Assembly: GCF_042453785.1 (NCBI RefSeq)
Contig: NC_091674.1
Span: 28,345,501 to 28,409,500, forward strand
Reading direction: 5' to 3'
DNA length: 64,000 nucleotides
Source: Malus domestica
Lineage: Eukaryota; Streptophyta; Magnoliopsida; Rosales; Rosaceae
The translations under genes were made by a program, and so were the position numbers. Positions within the stretch are counted from its first letter, which is position 1. Every line of letters begins with the position of its first letter. Below, piece after piece: positions 5,121-64,000 of this stretch. The notes under the pieces are model-generated. The model did not search any database. It was not told the origin of the DNA and was given only the letters and a program-made list of their open reading frames with translations.

Positions 5121-5784
5121 TAAGTTGTTGCATCCACCTAACCGTTGGTTTTCTCCCCATTTGTTTAAGGGGTTGTCTTAAATTGTTTTTGTTAGGGGAA
5201 AAACCTTCATTAGAAGAAAAACATACAAATTTCTTCCTTTTCAAACTCATTTTCGTAGTGGCTCAGACTGGATATTATTGGAACTGAATTCAAACTAATT
5301 TTATAGAGCCTCACCCTTAAGAGACAATATGTTATTTCGTCGTCCAATTTAATAAGTTCAATATCAACGCAGATAAATTCCTAAAACAACAACCATAACA
5401 TTGGCCAAATTGAATGAAAAGAGTCGAGTCCAAAAAGGCCTTTCCAGTATGCGCTAATTATATATCTCATCTTTAAACCAAGGTTTTGATTCAACCATAA
5501 TACATAAGCAAGCATAAATTTTTAAAAAACCCCTTTGGAACCTAAAGCATTTTCCTCTATGGAGCAAATTTTTCGTTTTGATCTTTCAAGTACTCAATCT
5601 TGTGTACTTTTGAGTACTTATTCACCGAAAGCGAGAAAATTCACACAGCATAATTGACCAAATTTTATTTGCAACACAAAAATTCATCATAATTTTGATC
5701 CTGCTATGTATTTTTAGATGCACAAAGTTCGCTTTGGTGCCTCTACAGACTCTTCTTCTGTGTCATCTAAGACCAGGACGATAT

Positions 5785-6322
5785 TCACGGAAACGTTTCT
5801 AGCCTGCAAAAAGGATATGACCACCGCCAGCTCGGGTCATGTACCGTACATTGTGTGCACGTATAGATTTTGACAGCATTGCTTAAGCCGTACATTGTGT
5901 GCACAGAACGAACTCAGTCTGAGCTGTGATTGTGCAGCCATGCCTTATGCTGCAATGGATTATTGTTGAAAGTGTTGAGTATATTTCGGCCTCTAGAGTT
6001 AGCTACCATGTTCTCTAGGGTTAGTCTTTTCTTTGATTTAATTAAGGGAGATGATTGATTGGTGAAAGTTGTTGTAAGGCTTAGACTAGGCTACTTTCTT
6101 TTCCTTGATTTAAGGGAGATGATTGATTGATGAAAGTTGTTGTAAGGCTTAGACTAGGCTAGTTAGCTTTGCTTTTTCTTTGTCTTTGTCGGCTGCTTGC
6201 AGCAGCCATCTCACCCTTCTTTCTTTCTTCTTTCTTTCTTTCTCCACTCCTTCCTCATATATACCTGAACCATTGTACATTGAACTTATGATATATATTA
6301 CAAATTAAAGCCATAATTTCTA
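5785..6322. other. Start of thionin unit 2; local tandem repeat, microsatellite, LINE target site
   Basis: No gene is visible. A roughly 65-bp block (agggagatgattgatt...aggcttagactaggct) is repeated in tandem at about 6031-6093 and 6102-6162. A pyrimidine microsatellite of TTTC units follows at about 6216-6243. The last 13-16 bases (6307-6322, aaagccataatttcta) are the left target-site duplication of the LINE and recur right after its poly(A) at 14421-14436. Confidence 0.7.
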
Positions 6323-10105: not shown

Positions 10106-13100
10106 ATGACACACTTATTTTGGAACTGCCGTGGTCTAGGGTCTGACATGGTAGTTCGAGCCCTTCATGGGCAAATGAGGGAACACAGACCCTCTATGAT
10201 TTTTCTCTCGGAAACAAAAATGAAAGATCATAGAATAATAGGGGTGAGAAGGAGAATAGGATATGCTAATGGTTTTAATGTTGCACCAATTGGCAGAGCG
10301 GGTGGCCTCAGCCTATGGTGGGACGACTCGATTCAGGTGGAGATTACAGATTCTTCTAAGCATCTCATTGATGCTCGCTGCTGTATTGTTGAATCGGGAG
10401 TGGTGTTTCGGTTTACCGGTACATACGGCACGTCTTACAGGGCTGAGAAAAAAGTCATTTGGAGGGGAATGATTCAAAATTTCAGACCGGATAGTATCCC
10501 TTGGATTTGTGGTGGTGATTTCAATGAGTTCTTATGGGATCATGAGAAAGTGGGTGGTGCTGAAGTAAGATACAACCGGCCAAGGTACTTGGAGGAATTC
10601 ATGAATAAGGTGGAGGTCTTGGATTTAGGCTTCAATGGCCAAAAATTCACTTGGCGGGGGACTCAAAATGGGCAACTAGTTGAGGCCCGATTAGATAGGG
10701 TTCTGGTCAACGATCGTTGGTTGTTTACTTGGCCGGACTCTTTTGTTACTAACGCCATGACTCTTGGGTCTGACCATTGTCCTGTTTTACTGCATTGTGA
10801 ATAGAAAGCTGTTATAAAGAAAAAGATGTTCCGTTTTGAGGCTTTCTGGACCAAGGATGCCGAGTGTAAAGAGATCGTGAGGAAAGCTTGGGAGAGGAGC
10901 TGTGATGGTAATCTGTTACAGAAATGGAATAAAAAGCTGCATTTATGCCGTACCACTTTAACTAGCTGGAGTAAGGCAAAATTTCATCAGAGGGGGAGAC
11001 AGATTAAGGATATGATGGTTCAATTGGGACGGTTACAAGAGAATTGGGGTCGAAATGCGAAAGAGATTGATTCACTTTCAAAACAGGTTGATCTCTTGTG
11101 GAGACAAGAAGAGTGCTATTGGCAGCAAAGATCTAGAGTTCAATGGCTTAGGGAAGGGGATGCTAATACGAAGTTTTTTCATCAGTCTACTCTGCATAGA
11201 AGAAGAAGAAACAAGGTGGTTTCTTTAAAAAATAGCAACGGGAATTGGATCGAGAACCCTAATCATGTCCGGTGTTTGTTTGATGAGTACTTCATGGAAC
11301 TCTTCACGTCATCGGGTCATCGGGAATGGGGTAATTTATTAGACTGTGTTTCCCAAAAAATTTCAGATGAAATGAATGTGTCTCTTTTGGCAGTGGTCTC
11401 GAGCGATAAAGTCAGGGCAACTGTCTTGCAGATGGGGAGTTTAAAAGCTCCGGGCCCAGACGGCTTTCCTGGAATCTTTTATCAAGCTAATTGGGATATC
11501 ATTGCTACGGAGGTAAATGAGATTATTTGGGAAATGATGAATGGAACGGAAAACCCAGGGCGAATCAACGCTACTCACTTGGTGCTAATTCCGAAGGTTC
11601 TTAAATCGGAATCTGTTGCTCAATTTCGTCCGATTAGCTTATGTAACTATTCTTATAAGGTGTTTTCCAAGGTTTTGGCAAATCGTCTCAAGGTGGTTCT
11701 GTCGGTTTTGATTTCTCCTTCCCAAAATGCTTTTGTTGCGGAGAGGCAAATACATGACAATATTGGAATTGCACATGAACTTTTTCATTTCCTAAAAACA
11801 AGGAAAGCAAGGAGCCATTTTGAATTGGGAATAAAGTTGAATATGCAAAAGGCCTATGATAGGGTGGAGTGGGATTTTTTAATGGCAATTATGGAAAAGA
11901 TGGGGTTCGATGATAGATGGAGAAAGCTGATTTTTTGCTGTATTTCGTCGGTCAATTTTGCCATCATGCTAAATGGTCAACCGGGACCCAAATTTGCTCA
12001 TTCTCATGGTCTTCGACAAGGTGATCCAATCTCCCCGTACCTTTTCCTTCTGGTCAGTGAAGTTATTTCTCTGCTTATTCAATAGGCTAGTGACAGGAAG
12101 TGGATTGGGGGTGCAGATGAGCCCGTCGGGTCCGAGTATTTCCCACATTCTATTTGCTGATGATACTCTTATCTTTCTTAAGGCGGAGGAAATGAATTGC
12201 AGGCATCTAATTCAGTTGATAGATAAGTTCTGTGCGGCTTCGGGGCAACATGTTAATAAGTCTAAGTCTAGTGTTTGTTTTGGCTCCAATGTGCTTGAGG
12301 AGGTCTCTCGACATCTAGCAGTTATTCTCGGGTTTGAGAGGGTGGGAGATCCGGGGATTTATCTCGGGGTTCCTGCTATGTGGGGAAGATCAAAGAAAGC
12401 CGGTCTTGCCTATGTTAAAGGGAGGCTTTTGGATAAGATGCAAGGTTGGAAAAAATCAACGTTTTCGCAAGCCGGTCGGGAAATCCTGATTAAGGCTGTG
12501 GCACAAGTTATCCCGGCTTATCTAATGAATTTGTTTAAGTTTCCTATATCGTTTTGTCACGAAATGGATGCCTTGATCTCTAAATTTTGGTGGGGTCAAC
12601 AACAGAGTGAAAATAAGATACACTGGGTTTCCAGGGAGAGGATGGGTCGGCCGAAGGAGGATGGTGGCCTCGGCCTTAGGAGCTTTGTGTTATTCAATGA
12701 CGCTCTGTTGGCCAAACAGTGTTGGAGGCTGATTATGGAACCTAATTTTTATGGGCACTTGTGCTTAAGGCCTGTTATTTTCCTAATTGCTCTTTCCTTG
12801 ATGCTAAGAAGGGTGGATGAGCTTCCTGGGTGTGGTCTAGCCTCATAACTGGAAGAGATATTCTTAGGGAAGGTGCTCATTGACAGATCATGGATGGAAA
12901 TGATACGAGGGTTTGGGTGGACAGATGGCTCCCCTCCATTCTTTTGGGTAGACCGTCCCCATTGGGCTCGATTCAAGTCTCGAAAAATCTGATGGTGAAG
13001 TCACTGATTAGTCCTGTGAATGGGGAATGGGAAATTGAATTTTTAAAACCTTTCTTGACGGAATCTGAGGTTAAGGCAATCTTGGCTATGCATACTAGTG

Positions 13101-14242
13101 ATCCGACGCTCAAGGACAGATTGGTATGGCATTATGATAAGAGGGGGTCTTATTCAGTCAAATCAGGCTAGTATTGGAGTCTTTCACGAAATATTGATCG
13201 CTGCCATCAATCTAACAGGTTAGCCTCCATTCCTTCTACCTTATGGAAGATTGTCTGGAAGTTGAAGGTTTCTCCTAAAATAAGAACTTTCATGTGGAGA
13301 ACCCTGCATGCGGCTTTAGCTATTATGAAGAACTTATTTATTCGTAGATCATCTCTTTCTCCCATTTGCCCTCTCTGTAATTCTTATGATGAATCAATTG
13401 AACATCTCTTCCTCTTTTGTCCTTGGGTGGAGGTGGTTTGGTTTGGGGGTTTGCTGAACTTGAGACCTCATCGACAACATGTTTCAAGCTGGGTAACCTG
13501 GCTTGTGCAAATGGGGGATGCGGAGAATGGGTCGATGGAGGTGAAGATTAATCGCCTATCTTATATTGCTTTCACATGCTGGCATATTTGGAAATCAAGA
13601 TGTGATTTTCAGTTCAACAACCAAGTTATATATCCCAGCAAGGTGGTAGCAGCTATCTCCAGTTCAGTCTCGGCTTTTCAGGAATCTATCAATCTGCCAA
13701 GGTTCCCATCTTTGCTCTGTCAACCAAACTTGGGTGAGGGAGTGCAGTGGACTCCTCCGAATCAAGGTGTAATCAAAATTAATGTGGATGCTAGTTGGGA
13801 GGCTAGTGTGGGTGGGGGCTTCACGGGGGTGGTGGCAAGGGATGCGAGTGGGAGGTTTTTGGCAACTTCTAGGCTTAGTGTAAAGGCTTTTGGTGCTACG
13901 ATGGCAGAGGCTTTGGCCATTTTACATGGGTGTAAGTTGGGGGTTGGAAACGGGTGGAATTCCATTTGGATTGAATCAGACTCGTTCGAAGCTATTTCTT
14001 GTCTGAGGGATCCGGCAAAGAAGGGCAGCTGGGATGCTTTTCCCATTCTTAGGAAGTGCTATCGTTTGGGAATGGCTTTTCAAGCTTGCCGCTAGTCTTG
14101 GGTTCCAAGACTAGCCAACTCGGTCACGGACTTTTTGGCGTCACGAAATTGTAAGGAAGCATGTGAGCAATTCTGGGTCCTTAGACCCCCATCTTCCCTG
14201 GTCCATGTCTTAAACAATGATGACCTTCCTTGCCCTCATTAG
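10106..14242 (+). pseudogene. LINE ORF2 remnant (endonuclease, reverse transcriptase, RNase H)
   Basis: Starts at ATG 10106 with an apurinic-type endonuclease (FWNCRGLGSD, FLSETK, GGDFNEF, LGSDHCPVLL). After an in-frame TAG (10802-10804) the same frame enters the reverse transcriptase (FRPISLCN, KAYDRVEWDFL, GLRQGDPISPYLFLL). A frameshift near 12070-12085 leads to the catalytic FADD box (about 12155-12170). Another shift near 12750-12850, a TAG at 13169-13171 and a TAG at 14093-14095 follow. The zinc-binding segment (CPLCNSYDESIEHLFLFC) lies near 13365-13420 and an RNase H domain (INVDASWE...ESDSFEA) at about 13780-13990. The C-terminus ends at TAG 14240-14242. Not functional as it stands. 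Confidence 0.9.
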
Positions 14243-35189: not shown

Positions 35190-38100
35190 ATGGAAGGAAG
35201 TGACACTATGATCAAACTCACCAACTCCAATTGGGTAACATGGAAGCCAAGGATGGAGGACATTCTCTATTGCAAGGATCTGCATGAGCCAATTGAAGGA
35301 GATGCCGCTAAGCCAGAGAGCATGTCCGATGCCGAGTGGAAGAAGATGAATCGCAAGGCTATTGGCACAATTAGACAATGGGTGGACGATAGTGTTTTTC
35401 ACCATGTGTCTAATGAAACCAATGCTCGCGAGTTTTGGACAAAGCTTGAGTCCTTGTTCGAGAAGAAGACTCCAGCTAAGAAAGCCTTCTTGATCAAAGA
35501 GCTCATCAATGTGAAGTACAAGGATGGTTTAAGTGTAGCAGAACACTGAACAATTTCCAGAATATCATCAACCAGTTGGCTACTATGAAAATGACGATTG
35601 AGGACGAGCTACAAGCGCTCTTGTTACTTGGATCCTTGCCAGACAGTTGGGAGACCTTTGTGGTGAGTATAAGTAACTCTGCTTCTAATGGTGTTCTTAC
35701 CCTTGATAATGTTAAAAATAGCATGCTCAATGAAGAAACAAGGAGAAAGACTTCTGGCACAGATAGCAGCCAAGTATTTGTCACAGAGAACCGCGGAAGA
35801 AGCAAGAGTAGAGGGCCTAGAGGTCATGGCAGGAGTCCTAGCCAATCCAAGTCAAGGTTCAGGGGTGCATGCCACCATTGTGGCAAAGAAGGCCATATGA
35901 AGAAAAATTGTCGAGTTTGGAAGAGAGAGCAAAGGGAAGGAAACAATCAGAAGAAAGATGATACTGGCAATACCACCGCTGTCATCTGTGGTGATGTACC
36001 AGAAATATTGTCTGTTGGTGAATGTCTGCATATGGGCAACTCTGACAGAGACATTGAATGGATTTTTGATAATGGAGCTTCCTTCCATGCTACGTCCAAA
36101 CGGGAGTTCTTCAGTACATACAAAGAAGGTGACTTTGGCATAGTGAAGATGGGGAATGAAAGCTATTCCAAAATTCTTGGAATTGGTGATATCTGCTTAA
36201 GAACTAATCTCGGCTGCCAATTGATGTTGAAAGATGTGAGACATATTCCTGATATACGTCTCAATCTGATATCCATCGGTACCCTTGATCGACAAGGATA
36301 TTATCACCATATTGGCGAAGGAAAATTGAAGCTTACTAAAGGCTTAATGGTGGTAGCAAGAGCACGACTTTGTTGTACGTTGTACCGGTCAAATGCCAAG
36401 GTTTTGAAAGGTGAGTTGAATGCTGTGGAGGACTCATCTCTAGACTTATGGCATAAGAGGCTAGGCCACATAAGCGAGAAAGGCCTACAAGTTTTGGCAA
36501 AGAAGTCTCACATTCCTTTTGCCAAAGGTACGTCGTTAAACTCTTGTGAGCATTGTTTATTCGGAAAACAAAGAAGAGTTAGTTTTTCTGTTCCATCTAC
36601 AAAGAAAGGAAATTTGTTAGATCTTGTTTATTCAGATGTGTGTGGACCCATGGAAGTCGAGTCACTTGGAAGAAATAAATATTTTGTTACTTATATTGAT
36701 GATGCTTCACGAAAGGTTTGGGTGTATTTGTTGAAATCCAAAGACCAAGTGTTTCAGACATTCCAGGAGTTTCATGCCATGGTGGAGAGGGAAATTGGGA
36801 AACCTCTCAAGTGCCTTCGTAGCGACAACGGCGGTGAGTACACATCTCACCAGTTTAGAGAGTATTGTGTGAAACATGGCATACGTCATGAGAAGACGGT
36901 TCCTGGAACTCCACAACATAACGGTGTTGCTGAAAGAATGAACCGAACCATCATGGAGAAAGTCAGGTGTATGCTGAGGACTGCAAAGTTATCTAAGCAG
37001 TTCTGGGGTGAAGCTGTAAGGACAGCCTGCTATTTGATCAACCGATCTCCATCAGTACCATTAGGTCTTGATGTTCCAGAGAGAGTATGGACTGGTAATG
37101 ATGTGTCTTACTCTCATCTGAAGGTGTTTGGTTGCAAAGCTTTTGTGCATGTGCCCAAAGAGCAGAGATCGAAGTTAGACTACAAAGCTACACCGTGCAT
37201 CTTTCTTGGTTATGGCGGTGAAGATTTTGGTTACAGATTATGGGACCCATACCAGAAGAAGTTTATCCGAAGTAGAGACGTGGTCTTTTATGAAGAACAA
37301 ACAATTGGGGATTCGGATAAAGAGGCACAACCAGATAGCGCAGTCAGAGGAGTTGATCCATTAGCTTCAGATGAAGAAAGTCACGATGACATCCCTGAAG
37401 CAACTGCCAATGAAGTGCCTGCAGAATCAGATAATGCTGATCAAGAGGAGCCTGATCAAGATGTGCCAGACCATGAGATTGCTGATCAGGGGGAGCCTAG
37501 TCAAGAAGAGCAGATTCAAGGAGAATCCAATCAGGGGGAGCCTCTAGCCCCGCAAGAGAATGAAGATCAGGTCAGAAGATCCAGCAGAAGTCGAAGACCG
37601 TCTACCAAGTATTCTTCATCAGAGTATATCATGTTGACTAATTATGGAGAGCCTGAAACTTATGAAGAGGCCAGAGCTCATAATGACAGTGATAAATGGA
37701 TGAAGGCAATGGAGTCAGAGATGGATTCCTTATCAAAGAATGATACCTATGAGCTGGTGGAGCTTCCAAAGGGCAGAAAAGCATTGAAAAACAAGTGGGT
37801 GTTCAAATTGAAAAAGGACGACAACATGACAAGGTACAAGGCTCGTTTGGTTGTCAAAGGTTTTGGTCAAAAGAAAGGAGTTGACTTTGATGAGATTTTC
37901 TCACCGGTGGTGAAGATGACTTCCATTCGAGTTATCCTTGGTATGGCAGCAAGCATGGATCTTGAGCTCGAGCAGTTAGATGTTAAAACTGCATTTCTCC
38001 ACGGCAATTTAGAAGAGGAGATATACATGGAGCAACCCAAAGGCTTTGAAGTCAAAGGTAAAGAAAATTTGGTGTGCAAGCTCAAGAAAAGTTTATATGG

Positions 38101-39202
38101 TCTTAAGCAGGCTCCGAGACAGTGGAATAAGAAGTTCAACTCATTCATGGTGAGTAATGGGTACAAGAGAACTCATGCTGACTCTTGTGTCTATATCAAA
38201 CAATTTTCTGGAGGTACATTCATCATCTTATTGCTTTATGTTGATGACATGTTGATTGTCGGACAAGATGCTTCTATGATTAAAAAGCTCAAAGAAGAGT
38301 TATCTAAGTCCTTTGACATGAAGGACTTAGGGCCAGCCAAGCAGATTTTGGGCATGGAGATAATTCGTGACAGAAAATCCAAGAAGTTGTGGCTGTCACA
38401 AGAAAAGTATGTTGAACGGGTGCTTGAAAGGTTCAACATGAAAGCAGCCAAACCGGTAAGCTCACCTTTAGCCAATCATATCAAGTTGAGCAAAGAGTCG
38501 TGTCCAAAAACATATGAAGAAAAGGAGAAAATGGCAGTTGTTCCCTACTCTTCAGCAGTAGGAAGTATCATGTATGCAATGGTGTGCACACGACCAGATA
38601 TTGCTCATGCAGTAGGTGTGGTGAGCAGGTTTCTCTCTAATCCAGGGAAGGACCACTGGGAAGCCGTTAAGTGGATTCTCAGATATTTGAAGGGGACTTC
38701 TAAGATGTGCTTGTGCTTTGGCGGTTCCAAACCAATCTTGGAAGGATTTACAGATGCTGACATGGGAGGTGACCTGGATGGTAGAAAATCTACATCTGGG
38801 TACTTGTTCACTTTTGCCGGGGGAGCCGTGTCTTGGCAATCCAAGTTGCAAAAGTGTGTTGCTTTGTCCACAACCGAGGCTGAATACATAGCCGCTACAG
38901 AAGCATGCAAGGAGTTGTTGTGGCTGAAGCAGTTTCTCCAAGAGTTGGGTTTGAAGCAAAGTGATTATGGCATTTATTGTGATAGTCAGAGTGCTCTGGA
39001 CTTGAGCAAGAACACTACATATCATTCACGCACTAAGCACATTGATATTCGTTATCACTGGATTAGAGACGCTATCGAGAACAAGTTGCTGCAGCTGAAG
39101 AAGATTCATACCGATAATAATTCTTCAGACATGTTGACAAAGGTAGTCACAAAATCAAAGTTGGAATTCTGCATTAAAGCTGCTGGGATGAACTCCAGGT
39201 AA
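35190..39202 (+). pseudogene. Copia 1 gag-pol polyprotein, single frameshift
   Basis: Starts at ATG 35190 (MEGSDTMIKLTNSNW). The frame breaks at about 35545, where one base is missing (gaacactgaac instead of a frame-keeping gaacacNtgaac). It then continues without a stop to 39202. Order: gag (to about 35840), zinc knuckle CHHCGKEGHMKKNC (about 35870), protease with the unusual active-site word DNGAS (36068-36082), integrase (core near 36820-36960, HNGVAERMNRT), reverse transcriptase (KARLVVKGFGQ; YVDDMLIVG near 38240) and RNase H (DADMGGDLDGRKSTSGY near 38755). Pol looks full length. The frameshift and the protease change make autonomous activity doubtful; transcripts might still be mobilised in trans. 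Confidence 0.93.
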
Positions 39203-52125: not shown

Positions 52126-52448
52126 AACACATTATTCCTGCAGTCTATTGGCTACTGAGAAAGAATATTCATCTGATTAGATGTACTTTTTTGTGTATAA
52201 TTTGTTTTTGCAGCATACAGACAGCAGTATGTGGGGATATTGCAATATACGCCACAGAGATATATCAAAAAGAACCTTCTGGCGCCGAGGAGAGGCTCAT
52301 CTTCACCAAGTTTGATGCTTCAGCACTTAGCACCCTTTTCAAACCGCAGACTTTTATGGATGCGTTCTTCTCCTTGGATCCGTATGACCATCAGGAGAGT
52401 GCAGGCATTAGGTTGGTGGCAAAGAAATTGATTCTTCATTCCAATTGA
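49930..52448 (+). CDS. NEN: NEN-type DEDDh exonuclease copy C
   Basis: Exons 49930-50212, 50554-50711, 50906-50952, 51045-51108, 51378-52048 and 52214-52448, all GT-AG and in phase, give 485 residues. The N-terminal exonuclease domain has FFDVETT (Asp15, Glu17), AGHNILRFD (His101 to Asp107) and HRSLDDVR (His162, Asp167), the full DEDDh set. A Ser-rich linker follows, then a conserved C-terminal domain (EFLQPDEISIPSI, SLQLCCRHMKLRFGI, LNIVCYASQNLCKVLDACDG, IAIYATEIYQKEPSGAEERL). Family knowledge: NEN proteins degrade nuclear DNA during enucleation of phloem sieve elements under NAC45/NAC86. Relative to D it lacks about 21 linker residues after GKSS. A CT/CA microsatellite sits in intron 5. The in-frame sequence upstream of ATG 49930 has no other ATG. 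Confidence 0.93.
52061..52122. repeat. (CT)n(CA)n compound microsatellite in NEN-C intron 5
   Basis: About 16 CT units followed by about 13 CA units lie just after the splice donor at 52049. Copy D has a much shorter version at 55399-55430, so the array has changed length since the C/D duplication. Confidence 0.9.
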
Positions 52449-53204
52449 TGGATGAATTTGGATCTCTGATTTATTTGACGGGGGAAGTTGCTCTGTAAAT
52501 ATGACATGTAAATATGACAAGTAGATTGACATATTCAGGATGATAGTTGTGACGTGTAATTGCAGTTTGTGTTAATGTTAATTCTTTCTTATTAAAATTC
52601 TGTGCTACCATATATGTTCTTTGACTATGCACTCTGATCAAATCAATTTATTAGAACCAAGTTATTATTACAGTTTTCGCACTTCCCTTTTCTACTCATG
52701 CTCCTTCCTTTTGTCCTAGCCTTTGAATTCAATAAATCAAATTAGATCAGACAACTGATACACCGAGAAAGAGAAAACGAGAGTGTGAAAATCACTACGG
52801 TAAACAATTCGAAAAGGAAACTCTTAATAAGTTTGCAACTAATTTGGCAACATTGTCTCTTGTGGCCAAGATGGTACCCACTTTGAGATTTGCGATTGTG
52901 AGCAAGAAAATAGGAAACTTGTATACTAATAAAGCCAAAAATCTCCTTTTAATCAAGCCTTAAAAATTCGTAAGATATGATAATTTCTTTCGTAACTCGT
53001 TAACTACCGTGATTTAAAAACCCGTTAGGACAACAGAACATACTACACAAACACGACAAAGATCATCCGTTTACCGGGTCTACTTCCATCGGACACAAGA
53101 CTTTCTCGTGTGGTCACTTCTTACATTTGGCCAAGGAAGCAGAAGCCGCATTGCACAACTGCTTTATATACGAGCGGGGATTTGGACACTTGGATGCAAA
53201 AAAA
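52449..53204. other. Spacer between NEN C and D
   Basis: The first part is the 3' flank of copy C and is repeated after copy D. The duplication junction lies at about 52975. It is followed by the promoter region of D, which matches that of C (gtttaccgggtctacttc, ggccaaggaagcagaagccg, gctttatatacgagcgggga). No other gene is seen. Confidence 0.7.
53165..53170 (+). promoter_or_regulatory. TATA box of NEN copy D
   Basis: TATATA, identical in context to that of copy C, 35-40 bp before the start codon at 53205. Confidence 0.5.
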
Positions 53205-55755
53205 ATGGCGAGTCGGAGCGAGGATCGGTTCGAAATAGCCTTCTTCGACGTGGAGACGATGGTGCCGACCCGATCCGGACAGGGCTTCACCATCTTGGAA
53301 TTCGGGTCGATTCTCGTTTGCCCTAGGAAGCTGGTGGAGCTCGAGAGCTACTCCACCCTGATTCGACCCGCCGACCTCTCCGCCATCAATTCCCTGTCCG
53401 TCCGTGGCAACGGCATTACCCGCGACGCCGTCATTGCCGCCCCTTCTTTTCAAGACATCGCCGATACGGTCTACGACATTCTCCACGGTTAGCTCCTTTC
53501 CTTTTAATTTTTGTTTTCTCAGTTTCTAACTCTGTTTGGCTGCCGAGAAAATTGAGGGAAAAATTTGGACTTTTATCTTTAGTTTTGTACGAATGAATTG
53601 ATAATTAACGTGAAGGTTTGATTTTTATGGATGATTGTGTGTTTGGTTGCTGAGAAATCGAAGGAAAATTAGCTGAAACTAAACTAGCTCAGTTTTAATT
53701 TTTGAGTGTTGCTTTGGATTTTTCATTTCTGAGGTTGTTGTTGGTGGATAATTTGAGATCCATTTTTCGAAACGGCATGAAAACTTATTTGACGAGTGAA
53801 ATTTGATTTTGCGGTTGTTGTGTATAGAACGTATATGGGCTGGTCACAACATTCTGAGGTTTGATTGTTATCGGATTCGGGAGGCTTTCGCACGCATTGG
53901 TCGGCCTGCGCCAGAACCGAAAGGTACCATTGATTCGTTGGCATTGTTGACACAGCGGTTCGGAAGGAGAGCTGGTAACATGAAGGTATTTATTTTCTCT
54001 CCATCTGTTGGTAAATGTTACCGGTTAGATTTTGATCCGAATAAGTTCTTTAAATTAAGGGGCAAAATGAAATATGTGGTTTTGAGGAGGAGGAGCATTT
54101 GTGCAGTTTCTAGGTGTTGATGTATGTTACTTGTGAATGTTATCGTTGATACATACATGACACAAATTATTTTGCGCAGATGGCCTCCCTTGCAACCTAT
54201 TTCGGGATTGGACAGCAGACACACAGGTATTTCTGCAAACCTAGTTCGAGTTTAAACTAATTACTCTTGCCTTCAATTTGGTTTCCTTGAACTAATCTTT
54301 TATGTAATGGTTTGTCAGGAGTTTGGATGATGTTCGAATGAATCTTGAAGTTCTGAAGTATTGTGCAACCGTGTTACTCTTGGTAATGATATGATTTTGA
54401 AAGGATGGTGAACCCATTCTTGAATAATAAAGCATTTATATGAAATCTCATGTGATGGTTTTTTAATGGTAGTGTAGGGCGGGGTGTTACCATGTTAGAA
54501 TATAAATCAATAGTATTTCCTTCCTTTTTTCCCTTTGTTTTTTCAAATTTGAAATGTATGAGGCGTAAGACGTAAGACCAGTCTTTCTAAAACAGTACTT
54601 GGCTCAACAAAATATTTCAATAGAACTAACTATAGTCTGATCTACTCACAGGAGTCGAGCCTCCCAGACATATTCACAGAGAATAGTTGGGTTTCTCCAA
54701 ATGCTACCACAAGAAGTCGTAGTGACGGGAAATCATCTGCTAAGGGGTCTCGCATAAACATGAATACTGAGCATGAGAATCGTCAGATGTTATCTTCTAC
54801 AAATCAAATAACAGGGGAGAATCATCCAATAACATCTCTTAGGACTAAAGACACTGAAGAAGTCTCTAATCTGATTGAATCTAGCGCCGCTCGACCAGAT
54901 CCCTTTGACATGGGCCCACTTAACGATGAAGTGACGAAAGAGCTGAATCAGCCAGACATTGCCATGGTAGAAATACCTGTGAAAGAGTCTGTCGAGAGTT
55001 CTTCCCCTTTTGCTGCATCGGGGAGTTCCAATGGCACTATGGAGTTTTTGCAGCCTGATGAAATCTCTATTCCTTCTATCTGTGCTTCCCTTGTTCCGTT
55101 GTATCATGGGAGTCAGAGGATAAAGTTGTTACACAAAGATGTAAGTTTGCAGCTTTGCTGTAGGCATATGAAATTGCGGTTTGGAATCAATGGAAAGTTT
55201 TTTGATCATGCTGGCCGGCCACGATTGAATATTGTTTGTTACGCATCACAAAATTTGTGCAAAGTTCTTGATGCATGTGATGGCATTGCACAAAAGTTGT
55301 CTATGGATTCCGGTAGCAGCTCCGAATGGAGGCCTGTTGTGATCCGAAAAGAGGGTTTCAATAACTATCCTACAGTGAGATTACAGTAAGTTTTAGTCTC
55401 TCTCTCTCTCTCTCTTTCTCACACACACACGAAACACATTATTCCTGCAGTCTATTGGCTACTGAGAAAGAATATTCATCTGATTAGATGTACTTTTTTG
55501 TGTATAATTTGTTTTTGCAGCATACAGACAGCAGTATGTGGGGATATTGCAATATACGCCACAGAGATATATCAAAAAGAGCCTTCTGGCGCTGAGGAGA
55601 GGCTCGTCTTCACCAAGTTTGATGCTTCAGCACTTAGCACCCTTTTCAAACCGCAGACTTTTGTGGATGCATTCTTCTCCTTGGATCCGTATGACTTTCA
55701 GGAGAGTGCAGGCATTAGGTTGGTGGCAAAGAAATTGATTCTTCATTCCAATTGA
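53205..55755 (+). CDS. NEN: NEN-type DEDDh exonuclease copy D (longest, intact)
   Basis: Exons 53205-53487, 53828-53985, 54180-54226, 54319-54382, 54652-55385 and 55521-55755 give 506 residues, close to the family's usual 470-510. The DEDDh residues are Asp15 and Glu17 (FFDVETM), Asp107 (AGHNILRFD), His162 and Asp167 (HRSLDDVR). A linker of about 110 residues rich in Ser, Asn and Glu links to the C-terminal domain with the same conserved blocks as in C. All splice sites are canonical. Among the four copies it is the most complete and probably keeps the ancestral function (nuclear DNA breakdown in sieve-element maturation, inferred from the NEN family). Exon 2 appears identical to C, and exon 5 contains 21 residues absent from C (AKGSRINMNTEHENRQML region). 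Confidence 0.95.
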
Positions 55756-57499
55756 TGGATGAATTTGGATCTCTGATTTATTTGATGGGGGAAGTTGCTC
55801 TGTAAATATGACAAGTAGATTGACATATTCAGGATGATAGTTGTGACATGTAATTGCAGTCTACGTTAATGTTAATTCTTTCTTATTAAAATTCTGTGCT
55901 ACCATATATGTTCATCGACTATGCACTCTGATCAAATTAATTTAGTAGTATGAAGTTTATTATTACAGAAATGGTTTTCGCACTTCCCTTTTCCACTCGT
56001 ATGCTCCTTCCTTTTGTCTTAGCCTTTGTATTCAATAAATCAAAGTAGATCAAACAATTGATACACCGAGAAAGAGAAAACGAGAGTGTGAAAATCGCTA
56101 CTGTAAACAATCCGAAAAGAAAACTCTTGATAAGTTTGCAACTAATTTGGCAACATTGTCTCTTGTGGCCAAGATGGGACCCACTTTGAGATTTGCTATT
56201 GTGAGCAAGAAAATAGGAAACTTGTATACTAATAAAGCCAAAAATCTCTTTTTAATCAAACCTTAAAAATTCATAAGACTTGAGCTCCTCCTTGATCACC
56301 AAGTTAATTATGGCTCCTGCATGCCGGCCCTGCCCTGCCATGTTATAAGCATGTGGTTTATATTTGTGAGGATTCAGAATCTTGTCCTTGAGATTTTTCA
56401 GTTCGGTAAAGGATGTGATGGATGACAGCAAAACAGAAATGGGGGCAGACATACTCTGTAAGCTTTGGAGTGTAGGTTATTTTCACTTCCAATTTTGGAA
56501 GGACAACCTTATCCCAACAACTAACTTGTTTTAAGGAACTGTAACAATCATTAGGAGTTGAGAAAATTTGTATTAACTAGTTTGACTTATTCTGCAATAG
56601 GGATTAGTTTCTGCATGATTGAAGATGGCGGCAGACAGACGGGAGGACAAGCCAAGCCATCGCGGGAGAGAGCACGTGTGCGAGAGGAATAAGAGCCGGT
56701 CGCTAGTCCACCGGGCAAGAAGGCAGGTAAGAGAGAGCAAGAGTAGCCAATGTTATGATGTTATATTAAGATTGTCCCTGCAGGCCCTAATTAAACATGT
56801 TTTGCTGAGCATGTGATTGAATTTTTGTTGGTGGCATGTGCTGTGCTTGATATTTTGTCATTTGGTAAAGGATGTGACGGCCACAATGTATTTCATGTTT
56901 GATTCTGTAAGATGCATGTACTTCTTCACTTCTTCTCTGGTAATTTCTAGCTATGTTCACATGATGATTGTATATATAGATAGATACAGATCAATACAAT
57001 GCTCTGCTTCAACGAAAGTGGTGTAATTCTGGTTTACGGTAGGTAACCCTTAATTCCATTTTGATTGTTTCGATCAGATGCATCTCGATTTTGGATTCTG
57101 CAACAGAAATACGGTACTCTGCAGATCCGAACATGTGGTGGTTAAGTCTGAAATGGTTCTGCTTCACTTAGTTTAGCTGTTGTAAAGCACGAGACAATGG
57201 GGGTTAATCCTTAAAATGGAGAAGGAAATAGGAGCTTAATTTAGAACTCTGAAAAAGTGAGATGTTGCAGTTGGGTAAAATCCGAGACATATATATAGAC
57301 ATGTGTTTATAGAATTTACGATGAGATCCTCCAAAATATCTGGCTGGAGGCCGTGAAACCCGACCAAAAGTTTGGTAGACCAAACTTTTTGTTGGGAAGC
57401 TGGTGTATTTGTAGCATGGGAGGGAGTCTGATTGCTGCATTGCATGGATATATGCACTTCTTGAGCCCTTGTGCTTTTTGTGTGCTGGTTTGAATTGCA
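55756..57499. other. Spacer between NEN D and the receiver gene
   Basis: 55756-56283 repeats the flank found after copy C. Beyond the breakpoint lies a minus-strand open stretch (56252-56452) of unknown nature. Around 56826-56915 there is a block similar to 63317-63400 (tttggtaaaggatgtgac.gccac). The last several hundred bases are the upstream region of the PRR-like gene. No further gene can be supported. Confidence 0.5.
56252..56452 (-). other. Unassigned 66-codon open frame
   Basis: An uninterrupted minus-strand stretch from ATG 56452 with protein-like composition (NPHKYKPHAYNMAGQGRHAG). I do not recognise it. It may be a fragment of a host gene left at the duplication breakpoint at 56283, or chance. 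Confidence 0.25.
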
Positions 57500-58749
57500 A
57501 TGGAGAAAGATAAGCAGATAGATATTGGTAACAGCAGCAGGCAAAATGGTGGCAGTAGAGCTAAGAGCAAGAACATGTCTGTGGATCGCAGTGGGGTAAG
57601 AATTTTGCTGTGTGATCGCGATGCTGGGAGTTGCGAGGAGGTTTGCACATTGCTGACAACATGCAGTTATCAGGGTACGTACACAAATGTAAATATTAAT
57701 GTATGCGTGTATATATCAATATGATCAGTCCTTTTTCTTCTGCATTTTTAATTCAAGTTTCGAATCAATTATTTATTTCTTTTGCGTTCCAAGCACCCTT
57801 GACAGTAATATCAGTTGCCTCGGCTGTGGAAGTGTTGGATGCGCTGAATGCCGAGTGGTCATTCATTGATATCATACTTGCTGCAATTGATCTTCCTATA
57901 GAGGCAAGCATGAGCATGCTCAACTATATAATGCAGGATCTGCATTTCAAACACATTCCAGTTATCAGTAAGCTTTACTTCTTGTTTTTGTTTCGCCAAC
58001 TTTCTATGTAACAGTTTTCTGCACTATATTCTTGTATCTAATAGAAACAACTGCACTCGGTTTTGCTCACTTGGGGAGCAGAAAAGTGAGCAACTCCGAG
58101 CGACACTTAAATCTAATGGCTAATTATCCCCTATATCTGGTTTCTGGTTCCCACCGGAGATCTGACCGCTAATATTATCAGGTGCTCACAGACGCTCTTT
58201 TTTGTTTGCTTTAGAGAGCATCCTACATGATGCACTATCTGCACATTATGGAATTCTAAGGATACGTACAATATTTGCTTGGAAAACCATGTAAAAATTG
58301 CCTCACACTTGCTAATCTTCTTGTTTTGAAGTGCTGGCGACGCAGGATGAAAGCCGTTTCCTTTTCAATTTCTTAAAATTTGGGGCCACTGATTATCTGG
58401 TGAAGCCACTGTGCATTGATCAAATACTAAACTTGTGGATGCACACTTGGAGGCAGAGGAAGCAACCTAAGGTAGGCATCCCTCCTTAAGTTTTCGATAA
58501 ATAAACAAGAAAAACGACCACGAACAAAGAAAGATGTAAACATTTGAACCATTGTTTGGAACTGAAACCTCATGGAAATGGCAACATTGTGGTAAAATCT
58601 TTCGATCTTTTCAGGGGCTGGAGGCGCCGCAGAAGAACATTGGTCTGGTGGTTTCGTCTGAAGCAACGATGAACAACATCTTGGTCTTGGATGACACAGA
58701 AGAAGAGTTTGCAGAGGATCCAAAGCCAGCTATGTGTATCAAAAAATAA
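57500..58749 (+). CDS. TOC1-like: TOC1/APRR1-like pseudo-response regulator, receiver domain only
   Basis: Exons 57500-57674, 57794-57967, 58332-58471 and 58615-58749, all GT-AG and in phase, give 207 residues. It aligns from the start with the N-terminus of TOC1/APRR1: RSGVRILLCDRD, EVCTLLTTCSYQ, VLDALNAEWSFIDIIL, IDLPIEASMSMLNYIM, and FGATDYLVKPLCIDQILNLWMHTW. The receiver fold is complete (residues about 33-155), with Lys141 kept. The phospho-acceptor position, already Glu in TOC1, is Ala here (LAAIDLP). After the fourth exon a stop appears at 58747-58749, so the middle region and the DNA-binding CCT domain are missing (full TOC1 is over 500 residues). It may act as a receiver-only partner of clock PRRs or be a decaying duplicate; sequence alone cannot decide. 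Confidence 0.82.
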
Positions 58750-58974
58750 ACAGCGGGATTAGAATTATGATGAGTATTTATATTGCAAATAAAATTTGGT
58801 TATCGGGTGAGAATTTCGAACCAAATTGTTGTCGGAAAATAAGCATATGCTCCACAGAGGAAAGGCTTAGGCTCGAAAGTGCTTTTAGAATCTATTCATT
58901 CTTGTTTAAATTTGATGGTTGTGGCAAAATCTTGGGTTAAACATGAGATGTAATCAGCACTGAAATTTCGTTAT
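58750..58974. other. 3' flank of the receiver gene
   Basis: Non-coding sequence, probably the 3' UTR and beyond, up to the first MITE. Nothing else is seen. Confidence 0.5.
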
Positions 58975-59186
58975 CGAATGAGGATCCTCTCGAGGATCCC
59001 GGAAATCCTCCAATTACGCCTATTTATCGTACATCGTGCGGTCATAAATCATTGTAATTTTTTTTATTTAAAATTGAATATAAATAGTACTTGACGAAAA
59101 TTAGATGCACAATATACGATCAACGGATGTGATTGGAGGATCCTGAGATCCTCACAAAAAGGATCCGGAGAGAATCCTCATTCTTG
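58975..59186. mobile_element. MITE family copy 1 (GAGGATCCTCTC-type ends)
   Basis: About 210 bp with inverted ends: atgaggatcctctcgaggat on the left and, on the right, ggatccggagagaatcctca. Internal arms tatcgtacatcgtgcggt and tgcacaatatacgatcaacg are also inverted. The same family recurs twice within 2.4 kb downstream. No coding content; superfamily not assigned. Confidence 0.7.
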
Positions 59187-59348
59187 GTTATCTATGTGTT
59201 TATCCTATTAATGAAATTGGACATCAGAAAGTATTAGCTAACAATTAACCACATGGCAAGTACAGGGCCTAAAATTCACGGAGAAGGATTCTCGCCGGAT
59301 CCTTTTCATAAGGATCCTAGGAATCAAGCGATCGTGATCGTTCATCGT

Positions 59349-60232
59349 TAGGGATGGGCAATGGTTATGCGGGTGGGTAACCGCGGTTAATTTACCCATA
59401 ACCGTTTATACTCATACCCGCATAACCGTTTACCCGTTGGGTAATTGCTTAAATGGTTATACTCATACCCATAACCGTTTGTAAACGGTTAACCATACCT
59501 ATAACCGCATACCCATTTAACCGTAACCGTTTAATACCCGTTTACCCATTTATCCTTTTTAACCGTTAATCTTTTTTTTTTACCATTACCCTTTTTTCAC
59601 CTATCTACATGTTTTTTAACAACTTGAAAATTAAAAAAAATTGTCATAATTTTTTTTTTTTGACAATTAAACACTGTTATAGGTACATTCATCATACATT
59701 TCCATATTTTAATTTTTTAAGTCCTTATACCATTCCAATAATTGAAATAATAGTTTACGGACGATATTTTTAACTGTTACTAATGAAGGTAAATATAATA
59801 TTTGCTAAGTATTTTTGGGTTACAAAAATTGTTTAGAAGACATTTCTGTCAAAGCATTTCTGTCAATTTCACGGTCACCCGTAAGGAATTTAAATTAATT
59901 TGGCCAATTCCTCGATGATGAGAATCATCATTCCTGTAGTAGTGTTATTGAAAGAAGGACCGATGAATTCCTTGCTAATTTATTTGGTGCTAAGTATTAT
60001 TTGATCAAGAACATGGTTTGTGTTAGTTTTACATATATAAAATAAATGAGTAAACGGTTATCCGTTTATAACCGTGGTTAATACCCATAACCGCTCATTT
60101 AAATTTCGCGGGTAAACGGTTATACCCATAACCGTTTATTTATCTAAACGGTCACCCATAACCGTAACCGTTTAATTTAAATGGACGGGTAACCGCAGTC
60201 ACCCATAACCAATGGGTATTTGCCCATTCCTA
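59349..60232. mobile_element. hAT-type non-autonomous element
   Basis: 884 bp with inverted ends TAGGGATGGGCAA and TTGCCCATTCCTA and a perfect 8-bp target duplication ttcatcgt (59341-59348, 60233-60240). Subterminal regions are dense in ACCCATAACCG/CGGTTATGGGT-type words, as typical for transposase-binding arrays of hAT elements. The middle has no usable transposase frame. It inserted into MITE copy 2. Confidence 0.9.
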
Positions 60233-60365
60233 TTCATCGTACATCATGCGGTCAGTTTTTGTTAGGTACTATTTATATTTAATTTTAAATTTTAAAATGA
60301 TTTATAACCGCATGATATATGATAAATGGTTACAATCACGGGATTTCTAGATCCCTAGGAAATGG

Positions 60366-61023
60366 TGTCACATCCCGGCCAGGGCCCCCACCACATCCCA
60401 GGCTCGACTCTACCGTAGCACGATATTGTTCTCTTTGGGCCTCAACCACGCCCTCACGGTTTTGTTTCTGGGAACTCACACCAGAACTTCCCCGTGGATC
60501 GCCTATCCTAAGATTGCTCTCGCGTGAACTCGCTTAACTTCGGAGTTCCAATGGAACCCGAAGCTAGTAAGCTCCCAAAAAGCCTCGTGCTAGGTAGAGA
60601 TGAGAATATACATATAAGGCTTGGAGGATCCACTCCCCTGGGCGATATGGGATGTTACAATCCACCCCCCTTAGGGGCTCGACGTCCTCGTCGGCACACT
60701 TCCTGCCAGGGATTGGCTCTGATACCAAATTGTCACATCCCGGCCCGGGCTCCCACACATCTCAGGCTCGACTCCACCGTAGCACGATATTGTCCGCTTT
60801 GGGCCCCCACCACACCCTTACGGTTTTGTTTCTGGGAACTCACACGAGAACTTCTCAGTGGATCACCCATCTTGGGATTGCTCTCGCCCGAACTCGCTTA
60901 ACTTCGGAGTTCTTACGGAACCTGAAGCCAGTGAGCTCCCAAAAAGCCTCGTGCTAGGTAGAGATGAGAATATACATATAAGGCTTAGAGGATCCACTCC
61001 CCTGGACGATGTGGGATGTTACA
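60366..61023 (-). mobile_element. Cassandra TRIM retrotransposon
   Basis: Two direct repeats, 60366-60659 and 60731-61023 (TGTCACATCCCGG...GGGATGTTACA), flanked by the target duplication aatgg (60361-60365, 61024-61028). They enclose only 71 bp, in which ggctctgataccaaat on the plus strand is the reverse of a tRNA-Met primer site, placing the element on the minus strand. Read on the minus strand, each LTR contains a 5S-rRNA-like segment (ccgaagttaagcgagttcgg, gcaatcccaagatgggtgat), the hallmark of Cassandra elements with a Pol III-type promoter. It has no coding capacity and depends on other retrotransposons. Confidence 0.95.
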
Positions 61024-61129
61024 AATGGATTCGACGATGAGTATTTTCCCTAATTCACACCCTCTTTTTAATAAAAAATGAAAAAAAAATAAACAATTAA
61101 TCATATGACATCCTACATGAAGCTATTAA

Positions 61130-61352
61130 CAAGGAATCCGGATCCTTCCCGGATTCTCTTTGTGAGGATCTCAGAGATCCGTAAATCTTGTTCATTCATC
61201 ATACATCGTGCAATCAGAAATCAATTTAAATATTTTTATTAAAATTAAACACAAACAATACTTAACAAAAACTGACCGCACAATGTATAATGAACCAATA
61301 CGATTCATAGATCTCTAAAATTATCACCAAAAGGATCCGGAGAGGATCCTGT
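61130..61352. mobile_element. MITE family copy 3
   Basis: About 220 bp with inverted arms: aatccggatccttcccggat ... gtgaggatctcagagatcc on the left, and agatctctaaaattatcacc ... ggatccggagaggatcctg on the right. The inner pair catacatcgtgcaatcag / gaccgcacaatgtataatg is also inverted. Same family as copies 1 and 2. Confidence 0.7.
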
Positions 61353-64000
61353 TTGATTAACAAGCGTCATGGAGGGAGTAAGATGACGCAATATAAGAAA
61401 AATAATTTGTTTTATTTTTATATGTTTCACCGCTATAAAGGGAATTAGAACGTGACTAGTGGTTTTTTGAATTGAGTTCTCAAAGTGTTTTTGTATAAAA
61501 CTTATAGTTCTAAGGGTGTTTGTTCTCATTTACTGATCTTATATAAAAGGTTAATGAAAAAGGATTACGATTGATTAAGACCATTCATCTTTGTACTTGA
61601 GATCTCTAGTTCAAACTCAAAATTATCTAAAACACAAAATGCATTTTCAAGTTTTTAATTTCTAATAATGCTAATACAACCAAAGTCGAGAACATATAAT
61701 TAATCTAATCTCACAATTAATAAATACGATTGACCTCTATTAAACTCGCACTGATATAACAAGAGAAATGCTTAAGGGCACTTGCCCCTCAACCGAGTCC
61801 GAAAGGACTCTCCCTCCACGTAATAGTACTTCAAAAGTTAATGTATTGCGAGTTTGATTGTTATATTTTTTTCAAGGTAATGCTAGAGATACAATTTTTT
61901 AAAAACTTTAATTTTTGGGCCATATGACGCGGTTTTAAGTATTAATTCATTTGATTGTTTCTTATTAATGACACATCACATGGTACTAGTTTACAAATTT
62001 GGTTGGAAAATTAATCTACCTAGCATTATTTTTAATAATATTATGCCCTCTCTATACCTTCAACCTTTCTCCTTTCCAGAAGAACCAAACGTCTTTAAAA
62101 TTTCAGTGGCTCTATCTCTCAAACCTTGAAATGTTCATGGCCGCTAAACTACCAAGACTCCATAAAAAAGAATAATCAAGCAAACCCAATAACTCATACT
62201 CCATATTTAGAAATTATCGTTGTACCAAGAACATGGTTCTTCGACCCAAAAACAAAAACAAAACAAAACATGTATTTACATCAATATTGGATCAAATTAT
62301 CCAGATATTTTTATATCAAAGAGCATAAAGAAGTTACACGGAGAGATCCATAGAAAAATTAACAATTCTGTTTCATTGAAGAGAGTTGGTTTGTACTCCT
62401 TTATGGGATCGTTGTTAGTTCTCTCTATCTTCATCTTGCTCAGGATCGCAGAAGCCCATAAGACATTTGATGCAGACTTCTTCTGTTGTTTTTCGACAGA
62501 TTAGTAAGTTGAACTTGATACGCATGGATCATCAGAATGTTCATTGACTATTATAGGATACTTCGAAGACGGTGTTGAAGGTGTTTTTGGGGGTAAAGAT
62601 GGCGTGGTTGTACTAATCATCAGATATGCAACCACAGAAGATACTCCAACAATGCCTTTAACAAATATCTCCTGTATTTAGCGTGAATGTCCCGACCCTT
62701 ATCTTTCTTCGAGAAATAGGAAGAAACTGAGCCAGCTTGAGTGAGATCAATTTCTGATCGTGCAACTGAGAATGCATGCATCGGCTGAGCTTCCATCCAA
62801 GCGACGGTTACATATCGCTTTAGCTATTTTGATCGATAGGGGCAAGTAGGAAAGCTATCTACAGGTTAATGTGCTTGGTTAGGCAATAACAGCAGCTCAG
62901 CTTCATCCATGTCATGGTGCTGTAAGATGGTCCCAGTCCCCCCAACTCTCAACGTGTGATAGATTTACGTCGATTCTTCTTGAAGTTGGCTTAATTGTGA
63001 AAGCTTTTCTTTGTTGGTTGAGTTTCCATCTGCCTATGAAGTCAGTGTCTTATTGACTACACTTCCTCTTGCATTTATTTTGGCTTCTCCAGCGCACTTG
63101 CTGGTGAGGGCATGTATTTGCACCTAGAGCAGTTCGTCAGATAGAGAGAAAGTTCGAGCAGCAAACCCATTTGGTGAAGAGGGAGGGAGTTGGGTGTACT
63201 TGGCTTTTGTAATTTCTGTTTGATATCAATGGAATTTCCTCGCCGTCTCTGAACTAGCTTTTGCGTGTTATTTGGATTTCTGAATTTATCATATTTTGCC
63301 TTGTTTTGAACAATTCCATGTGCTTAATGTGCTTGAAATTTGATTTGGTAAAGGATGTGACAGCCACCTGCTTGTGATATCATTTTGTAAAAAAGCATGT
63401 GGAGCAAAAATCTTGGAGAAGAAGAGTATACCCTGTATACGCTAGCAGATACATCCCCTCCCATAATACACATGCAGGCATCCTGCTTATGTTTTTTATG
63501 ATTCGAGCGACGGTCCACATTAAACTAGTCTAACTACGGGAAGAGAGATTCAAATTTGTGTAAAGGTAAAGGGCATTGTTCTAACTAACTTGGCTTATCG
63601 CGTTTGCTTATGACTCACCTAAATGTTGTTCTTCTTTAGTTATGGGGGTTGCTCTTGTTTTGTGGTTAGGATGGGTGGGTAGTGATTTTCACGCTTTCAT
63701 TTTCTCCTTATGTAGTACGCCTCATTTTTTCGTGAATCTTAAATTTCTTTTAATTTATTCAATCCAAGAGAAAAACAAGGAGAAGTGCACGGGAAAAAAG
63801 GAATATACACAAATCAATGTAAAATAACAGCGTGAATTGGTTCCATTCATGCATAAAATTAGTTGTATAATATGCCAAATTATTCATTTTGTTAGCAGTT
63901 TAGTTTAGTTCGGTTCAGTTATTTTCATTCATAACTAACTAAGAAAATATTACATATTAATGGCTTTCATACAATAATAATATAACAATAGTTGATAATA
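61353..64000. other. Intergenic, no supported gene
   Basis: AT-rich sequence with only short fortuitous open frames. The block 63317-63400 resembles 56826-56915 (tttggtaaaggatgtgac), suggesting an old duplication around the receiver gene. A short frame near 62402-62504 has a hydrophobic start (MGSLLVLSIFILLRIAEA) but no recognisable continuation. I could not assign any exon with confidence. Confidence 0.5.

What the first reader, a model, noticed from the sequence alone, without database searches (positions are those of the whole stretch)
57500..58749. Receiver-only TOC1-like gene with clean splice sites
All four exons keep phase and canonical borders over 207 codons, yet the protein ends right after the receiver domain and has no CCT DNA-binding domain. 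The acceptor-site position that is Glu in TOC1 is Ala here. A receiver-only clock protein could bind PRR partners and compete with full-length TOC1, or be an early-stage pseudogene.
Basis: partly seen in the sequence, partly recalled or inferred. Interest (0 to 1): 0.7.

Follow-up and report, generated by a model that had tools for sequence, protein, structure and literature searches.

The report
Short TOC1-type plant clock gene
A plant genome carries a shortened copy of the clock gene TOC1 that keeps only the protein-binding half; a similar short copy is already described in rose, so this is probably a relative of a known kind whose role is untested.

Summary
Four exons (57500-57674, 57806-57967, 58332-58471, 58615-58749) with GT..AG borders encode a pseudo-receiver and a short tail. 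The tail still resembles TOC1, so it looks like a TOC1 copy cut short in its fourth exon. No CCT motif was found in the window. The acceptor Asp is Ala85. Neutral drift to 60% identity left the frame open in 8 of 400 runs, to 80% in 60 of 400: against an old pseudogene, not against a young one. Rose RcPRR1b is a described four-exon, CCT-less TOC1 paralogue (PMC9266954), so the architecture is not new. Best reading: a PRR1b-type receiver-only competitor of full-length PRRs. Expression, orthology and binding are untested; the own-genome search did not complete (9 tries).

The parts
57500..57674 (+). exon 1: ATG, N-terminal tail and first part of the pseudo-receiver
   Evidence: translation and donor AGG|GTACGT; in-frame stop upstream at 57491 with no other in-frame ATG between
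57806..57967 (+). exon 2: middle of the receiver; holds Ala85 at the acceptor-Asp position
   Evidence: gapless alignment to recalled TOC1 and alignment to ARR1 of the PDB; residue number
57968..58331 (+). intron 2; holds a small inverted repeat (58056-58072 / 58084-58100)
58332..58471 (+). exon 3: end of the receiver, with Ala115 at the Ser/Thr position and Lys137
58472..58614 (+). intron 3
   Evidence: GT..AG borders
58615..58749 (+). exon 4: TOC1-linker-like tail and the stop codon
   Evidence: alignment to the recalled TOC1 linker; 8 GT sites in exon 4 match a donor consensus at 3-4 of 8 positions, against 6, 5 and 6 for the donors used
58788..58793 (+). AATAAA, possible polyadenylation signal 39 bases after the stop
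5526..5787 (-). decayed relic of a second copy: end of exon 4 and start of the 3' UTR only
   Evidence: 82% over 131 bases plus a collinear 44-base piece; 15 differences in 26 codons, five at each codon position

Best explanation
It is a protein-coding paralogue of TOC1/PRR1, cut short inside its fourth exon, of the same make as the rose gene RcPRR1b. Shown by sequence: a receiver-domain match, an open four-exon frame, a TOC1-like tail, no CCT found in the window, and loss of the acceptor Asp and of the conserved Ser/Thr. Inferred: the protein cannot take phosphate and cannot bind DNA through a CCT. It would bind TOC1, other PRRs or the degradation factor ZEITLUPE through the receiver, and so either lower the active pool of full-length TOC1 or shield it. 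It would probably need a partner to enter the nucleus, since the CCT motif carries a nuclear signal in TOC1.
For: Pfam receiver hit. Recalled TOC1 scores 156 bits against 92 for PRR5 and 90 for PRR7; 75 of 129 receiver residues equal recalled TOC1 without a gap. The two exon joins inside the receiver fall in gap-free stretches. Under neutral substitution the frame stayed open in 8 of 400 runs at 60% identity, 24 at 70% and 60 at 80%. GC at third codon positions is 0.52 against 0.31, 0.39 and 0.36 in the three introns. Rose has a CCT-less RcPRR1b with 4 exons beside a 6-exon RcPRR1a (PMC9266954, section 2.3 read whole). The PR domain is needed for PRR dimers (PMC9486492, passages); PRR9 meets TOC1 through the RR domain and the CCT gives a nuclear signal (PMC2292679, passages); TOC1's repression needs a functional CCT (PMC6378743, passages).
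Against: No transcript, protein or interaction data are within reach. No TOC1 nucleotide sequence of the species was at hand, so dN/dS was not measured. The Ala at the acceptor site may harm pairing: wild-type ARR18 pairs with its D70E form but not with D70N (as told in PMC7534434, passages). Identity to recalled TOC1 is 58% in the receiver and 48% over 178 aligned positions. Eleven ATGs lie in the 500 bases before the start, which would matter if the leader is not spliced. The only other trace of the gene found in the window is a decayed relic, so copies of it do die. In TOC1 the RR domain is not needed to bind PIF4 or PIL6 (PMC2292679, passages).
Confidence: 0.45

Rival explanations
1. A recently silenced pseudogene: a TOC1 copy that lost function, or most constraint, too recently to have gained a stop or frameshift.
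For: Low identity to recalled TOC1; two active-site losses; a decayed relic of the same gene in the window; repeats just downstream.
Against: No stop, no frameshift, three introns with GT..AG borders and a kept receiver signature; long neutral drift rarely leaves this (8 of 400 runs at 60% identity, which did not count indels). At 80% identity 60 of 400 runs stay open, so the argument is not strong for a young copy.
Confidence: 0.3
2. A short TOC1 paralogue with a function of its own not based on competition, for example a scaffold for CO or ZTL.
For: Full-length RcPRR1a binds RcCO (PMC9266954, section 2.8); TOC1 has many partners (PMC9486492, passages). The abstract of the rose paper credits silencing of RcPRR1b with earlier flowering.
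Against: Section 2.7 of the same paper describes silencing of RcPRR1a and RcPRR5, not RcPRR1b, so an RcPRR1b phenotype is uncertain.
Confidence: 0.2
3. The short form is only one splice product, and a downstream exon set supplies a CCT domain.
For: Alternative splicing of clock genes is common (recalled).
Against: No significant CCT match in 2662 pieces of the window, whose end lies 5.2 kb past the stop (one of the 15 listed chance-level pieces begins at 58476, E 3.4); tblastn with recalled TOC1 gave three hits below E 1e-6, all of them receiver exons of this gene, and the next at E 2.1; no consensus-like donor in exon 4.
Confidence: 0.04

Closest known systems
RcPRR1b of Rosa chinensis (PMC9266954)
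   Same: TOC1/PRR1 clade, receiver present, no CCT domain, 4 exons against 6 in RcPRR1a
TOC1/PRR1 (pseudo-response regulator)
   Same: receiver block in gapless alignment, linker-like tail
   Different: stops in the fourth exon; no CCT; Ala in place of Glu (recalled TOC1) at the acceptor position
microProtein candidate for rice Os07g49460 (PMC7534434)
   Same: a response-regulator protein without CCT proposed to target a PRR with CCT (passages)
   Different: that candidate keeps the acceptor Asp; this one has Ala
type-B ARR1 receiver (PDB 8xat, 9h6e)
   Same: best solved relatives by sequence, E 1.6e-14 and 9.8e-13
   Different: ARR1 keeps the acceptor Asp and the Ser and has a GARP DNA-binding domain (recalled)

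Membership tests
Response-regulator receiver fold (PF00072) | match above the curated cut-off | tested here: met
   41.9 bits against 30.2
Phosphorylatable response regulator | acceptor Asp, conserved Ser/Thr and Lys | tested here: not met
   Asp is Ala85 and Ser is Ala115 in the ARR1 alignment; Lys137 kept
TOC1/PRR1 clade | closer to TOC1 than to PRR5/9 or PRR3/7 | tested here: met
Canonical clock PRR | C-terminal CCT motif | tested here: not met
   no CCT found in the window
RcPRR1b-type short TOC1 paralogue | four exons, receiver, no CCT | tested here: met
   against the description
RcPRR1b-type short TOC1 paralogue | orthology to the rose gene by tree or synteny | not testable with these tools
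   no plant collection was offered; the genome search on the own genome unanswered 9 times
microProtein | single interaction domain related to a larger multidomain protein | tested here: met
   203 residues; limit seen in passages, which themselves call it arbitrary
microProtein | binds and inhibits its larger relative | not testable with these tools
   needs binding and expression assays

The most novel reading that the evidence does not exclude
A dedicated receiver-only TOC1 competitor, kept by selection since before the split of rose and this plant, forms an extra post-translational arm of the clock in that lineage.
Probability: 0.2. Interest if true: 0.65.

Novelty: new member of a known kind. 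Interest (0 to 1): 0.35.

Why it matters
A review concludes that angiosperms keep only one TOC1/PRR1 copy (PMC9486492, passages), and an earlier study found one in all plants it examined (PMC2887406, passages). Exceptions are in print: the rose pair and PRR1a and PRR1b of Chinese cabbage (PMC9266808, title in a search listing). A receiver-only copy that stays open would be a natural test of what the pseudo-receiver does without a CCT, and might tune flowering or dormancy (inference).

Tried and rejected
Search for relatives: in genome contigs 21 stretches matched a pattern and 1 encoded a relative, a bacterial receiver at 29% identity in an acidobacterial MAG; in viral contigs 3 stretches matched and none was a relative. 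By their description neither collection holds plants, so these say nothing about plant orthologues. A promoter argument from the evening element (AAAATATCT, name and role recalled) at 57333 was dropped: 5 copies in the window against 1.74 expected, and 4 of 100 shuffles reach 5. Rfam gave no match in 55800-64000. dN/dS against the relic was not tried beyond codon-position counts because only 26 codons align. My first splice script began exon 3 one base late and broke the frame; the next mended the model. Structure prediction could not be run. The main text of the pear CCT-family paper holds neither 'PRR1' nor 'receiver', which is no surprise in a survey of CCT genes.

Literature: nine paper searches. 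Apart from the rose gene and the rice candidate I saw no CCT-less TOC1-like gene in those listings or in the passages that I opened; lists were cut at 4 to 25 papers each and most subscription journals are not held, so this is no proof of absence.

Full report
What is there. On the + strand at 57500-58749 four exons join into one open frame of 203 codons, with GT..AG introns of 131, 364 and 143 bases. The frame starts at the only in-frame ATG after an upstream stop at 57491. One Pfam domain passes its cut-off, the receiver at residues 35-146. Its best solved relatives by sequence are plant ARR1 receivers. Other genes of the window are those of a plant: a xyloglucan fucosyltransferase, a PPR protein, an RNase_T exonuclease exon, copia-type and reverse-transcriptase elements. 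The species is not known to me; a rosaceous plant is an inference from recalled repeats and from the likeness to the rose gene.

Correction of the model. Of five AG sites at 57701-57830, four keep the frame to the stop. I aligned two of these forms. The one at 57806 reads ..CSYQVISVASAVEVLDALNAE.. and has no gap in the receiver against recalled TOC1, PRR5 and PRR7; the 57794 form has four more gap positions and lower scores with all three. I take 203 residues as the main form; both acceptors may be used. Keeping any one of the three introns brings a stop at residue 75, 127 or 165.

Which family. Part of the tail after the receiver still resembles the TOC1 linker. So the gene looks like a TOC1 copy that lost its end inside the fourth exon. 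PRR3 and PRR9 were not compared and no tree was made.

What is missing. Of 2662 stop-to-stop pieces of the window, 15 were listed against a recalled CCT profile at E up to 10, the best at 1.4. tblastn with recalled TOC1 gave three hits below E 1e-6, all receiver exons of this gene; the next was at 2.1. The acceptor Asp is Ala85 and the conserved Ser is Ala115; the Lys is kept.

Is it alive? A neutral simulation on the coding sequence, substitutions only, left the frame open in 246 of 400 runs at 95% identity, 155 at 90%, 99 at 85%, 60 at 80%, 24 at 70%, 8 at 60% and 2 at 50%. Receiver identity to recalled Arabidopsis TOC1 is 58%, but part of that divergence belongs to the Arabidopsis branch and to the time before the copy was made, so the fitting row may be 70-80% (inference). 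This argues against an old pseudogene without excluding a young one. Third-position GC of 0.52 against 0.31-0.39 in the introns is weak support for coding.

A relic. At 5787-5526 on the - strand lies a copy of the end of exon 4 and the start of the 3' UTR (82% over 131 bases plus a collinear 44-base piece). Its 26 aligned codons carry 15 differences, five at each codon position; its stop comes two codons earlier; 8 of 51 bases after the stop differ. It looks like a dead fragment, and it suggests that the short 3' end existed before that duplication (inference).

What is known. In Rosa chinensis five clock PRRs are described; RcPRR1b alone has no CCT domain, and has 4 exons against 6 in RcPRR1a (PMC9266954, section 2.3). 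That is the anatomy seen here. The abstract of that paper says that silencing RcPRR1b gives earlier flowering, but section 2.7 describes RcPRR1a and RcPRR5, so no RcPRR1b phenotype can safely be taken from it. A rice response-regulator microProtein without CCT has been proposed for Os07g49460 (PMC7534434, passages).

How it may work. The PR domain makes PRR dimers (PMC9486492, passages) and meets ZEITLUPE and PRRs (PMC2887406, passages). The repressor activity of TOC1's PRR domain needs a working CCT (PMC6378743, passages), and the CCT carries a nuclear signal (PMC2292679, passages). A receiver-only copy would then bind without repressing: it could titrate TOC1 or PRR5, or shield TOC1 from ZEITLUPE. 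All of this is inferred. The Ala may weaken pairing, by analogy with ARR18 D70N.

Verdict. A sound gene model, ordinary in kind, with an untested but reasonable competitor role: a new member of a known kind.

Noticed in passing
5526-5787 (-): Relic of a second copy of the short TOC1-like gene: exon 4 end and 3' UTR start only, in opposite orientation about 52 kb away.
   Followed up: partly
52394-52975 and 55701-56278: A 91.5% identical repeat at the 3' ends of what look like neighbouring copies of an exonuclease-like gene; RNase_T was found only in the exon at 53205-53489, and the likeness of the open frames at 47260, 51573 and 54760 is judged by eye.
   Followed up: partly
60366-60660 and 60731-61024: Two 90% identical units of about 295 bases, 365 bases apart, downstream of the gene, among other short dispersed repeats at about 59.0-61.4 kb.
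   Followed up: no
56383-56421, 56842-56880, 63317-63367: A short motif around GGTAAAGGATGTGA occurs three times, twice upstream of the gene and once near the window end; it might mark another gene copy beyond the window.
   Followed up: no
35576-39199 (+): A 1208-residue open copia-type polyprotein frame; a second, split copia-like element lies at 41.1-43.5 kb.
   Followed up: partly
10106-14095 (+): Likely non-LTR (LINE-type) element split over several frames: endonuclease and reverse transcriptase domains at 10106-12082, further frames to 14095 seen only.
   Followed up: partly
57001-57500: Eleven upstream ATGs before the start codon, each with a short frame of 3 to 32 residues; a spliced leader would avoid some of them.
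   Followed up: no
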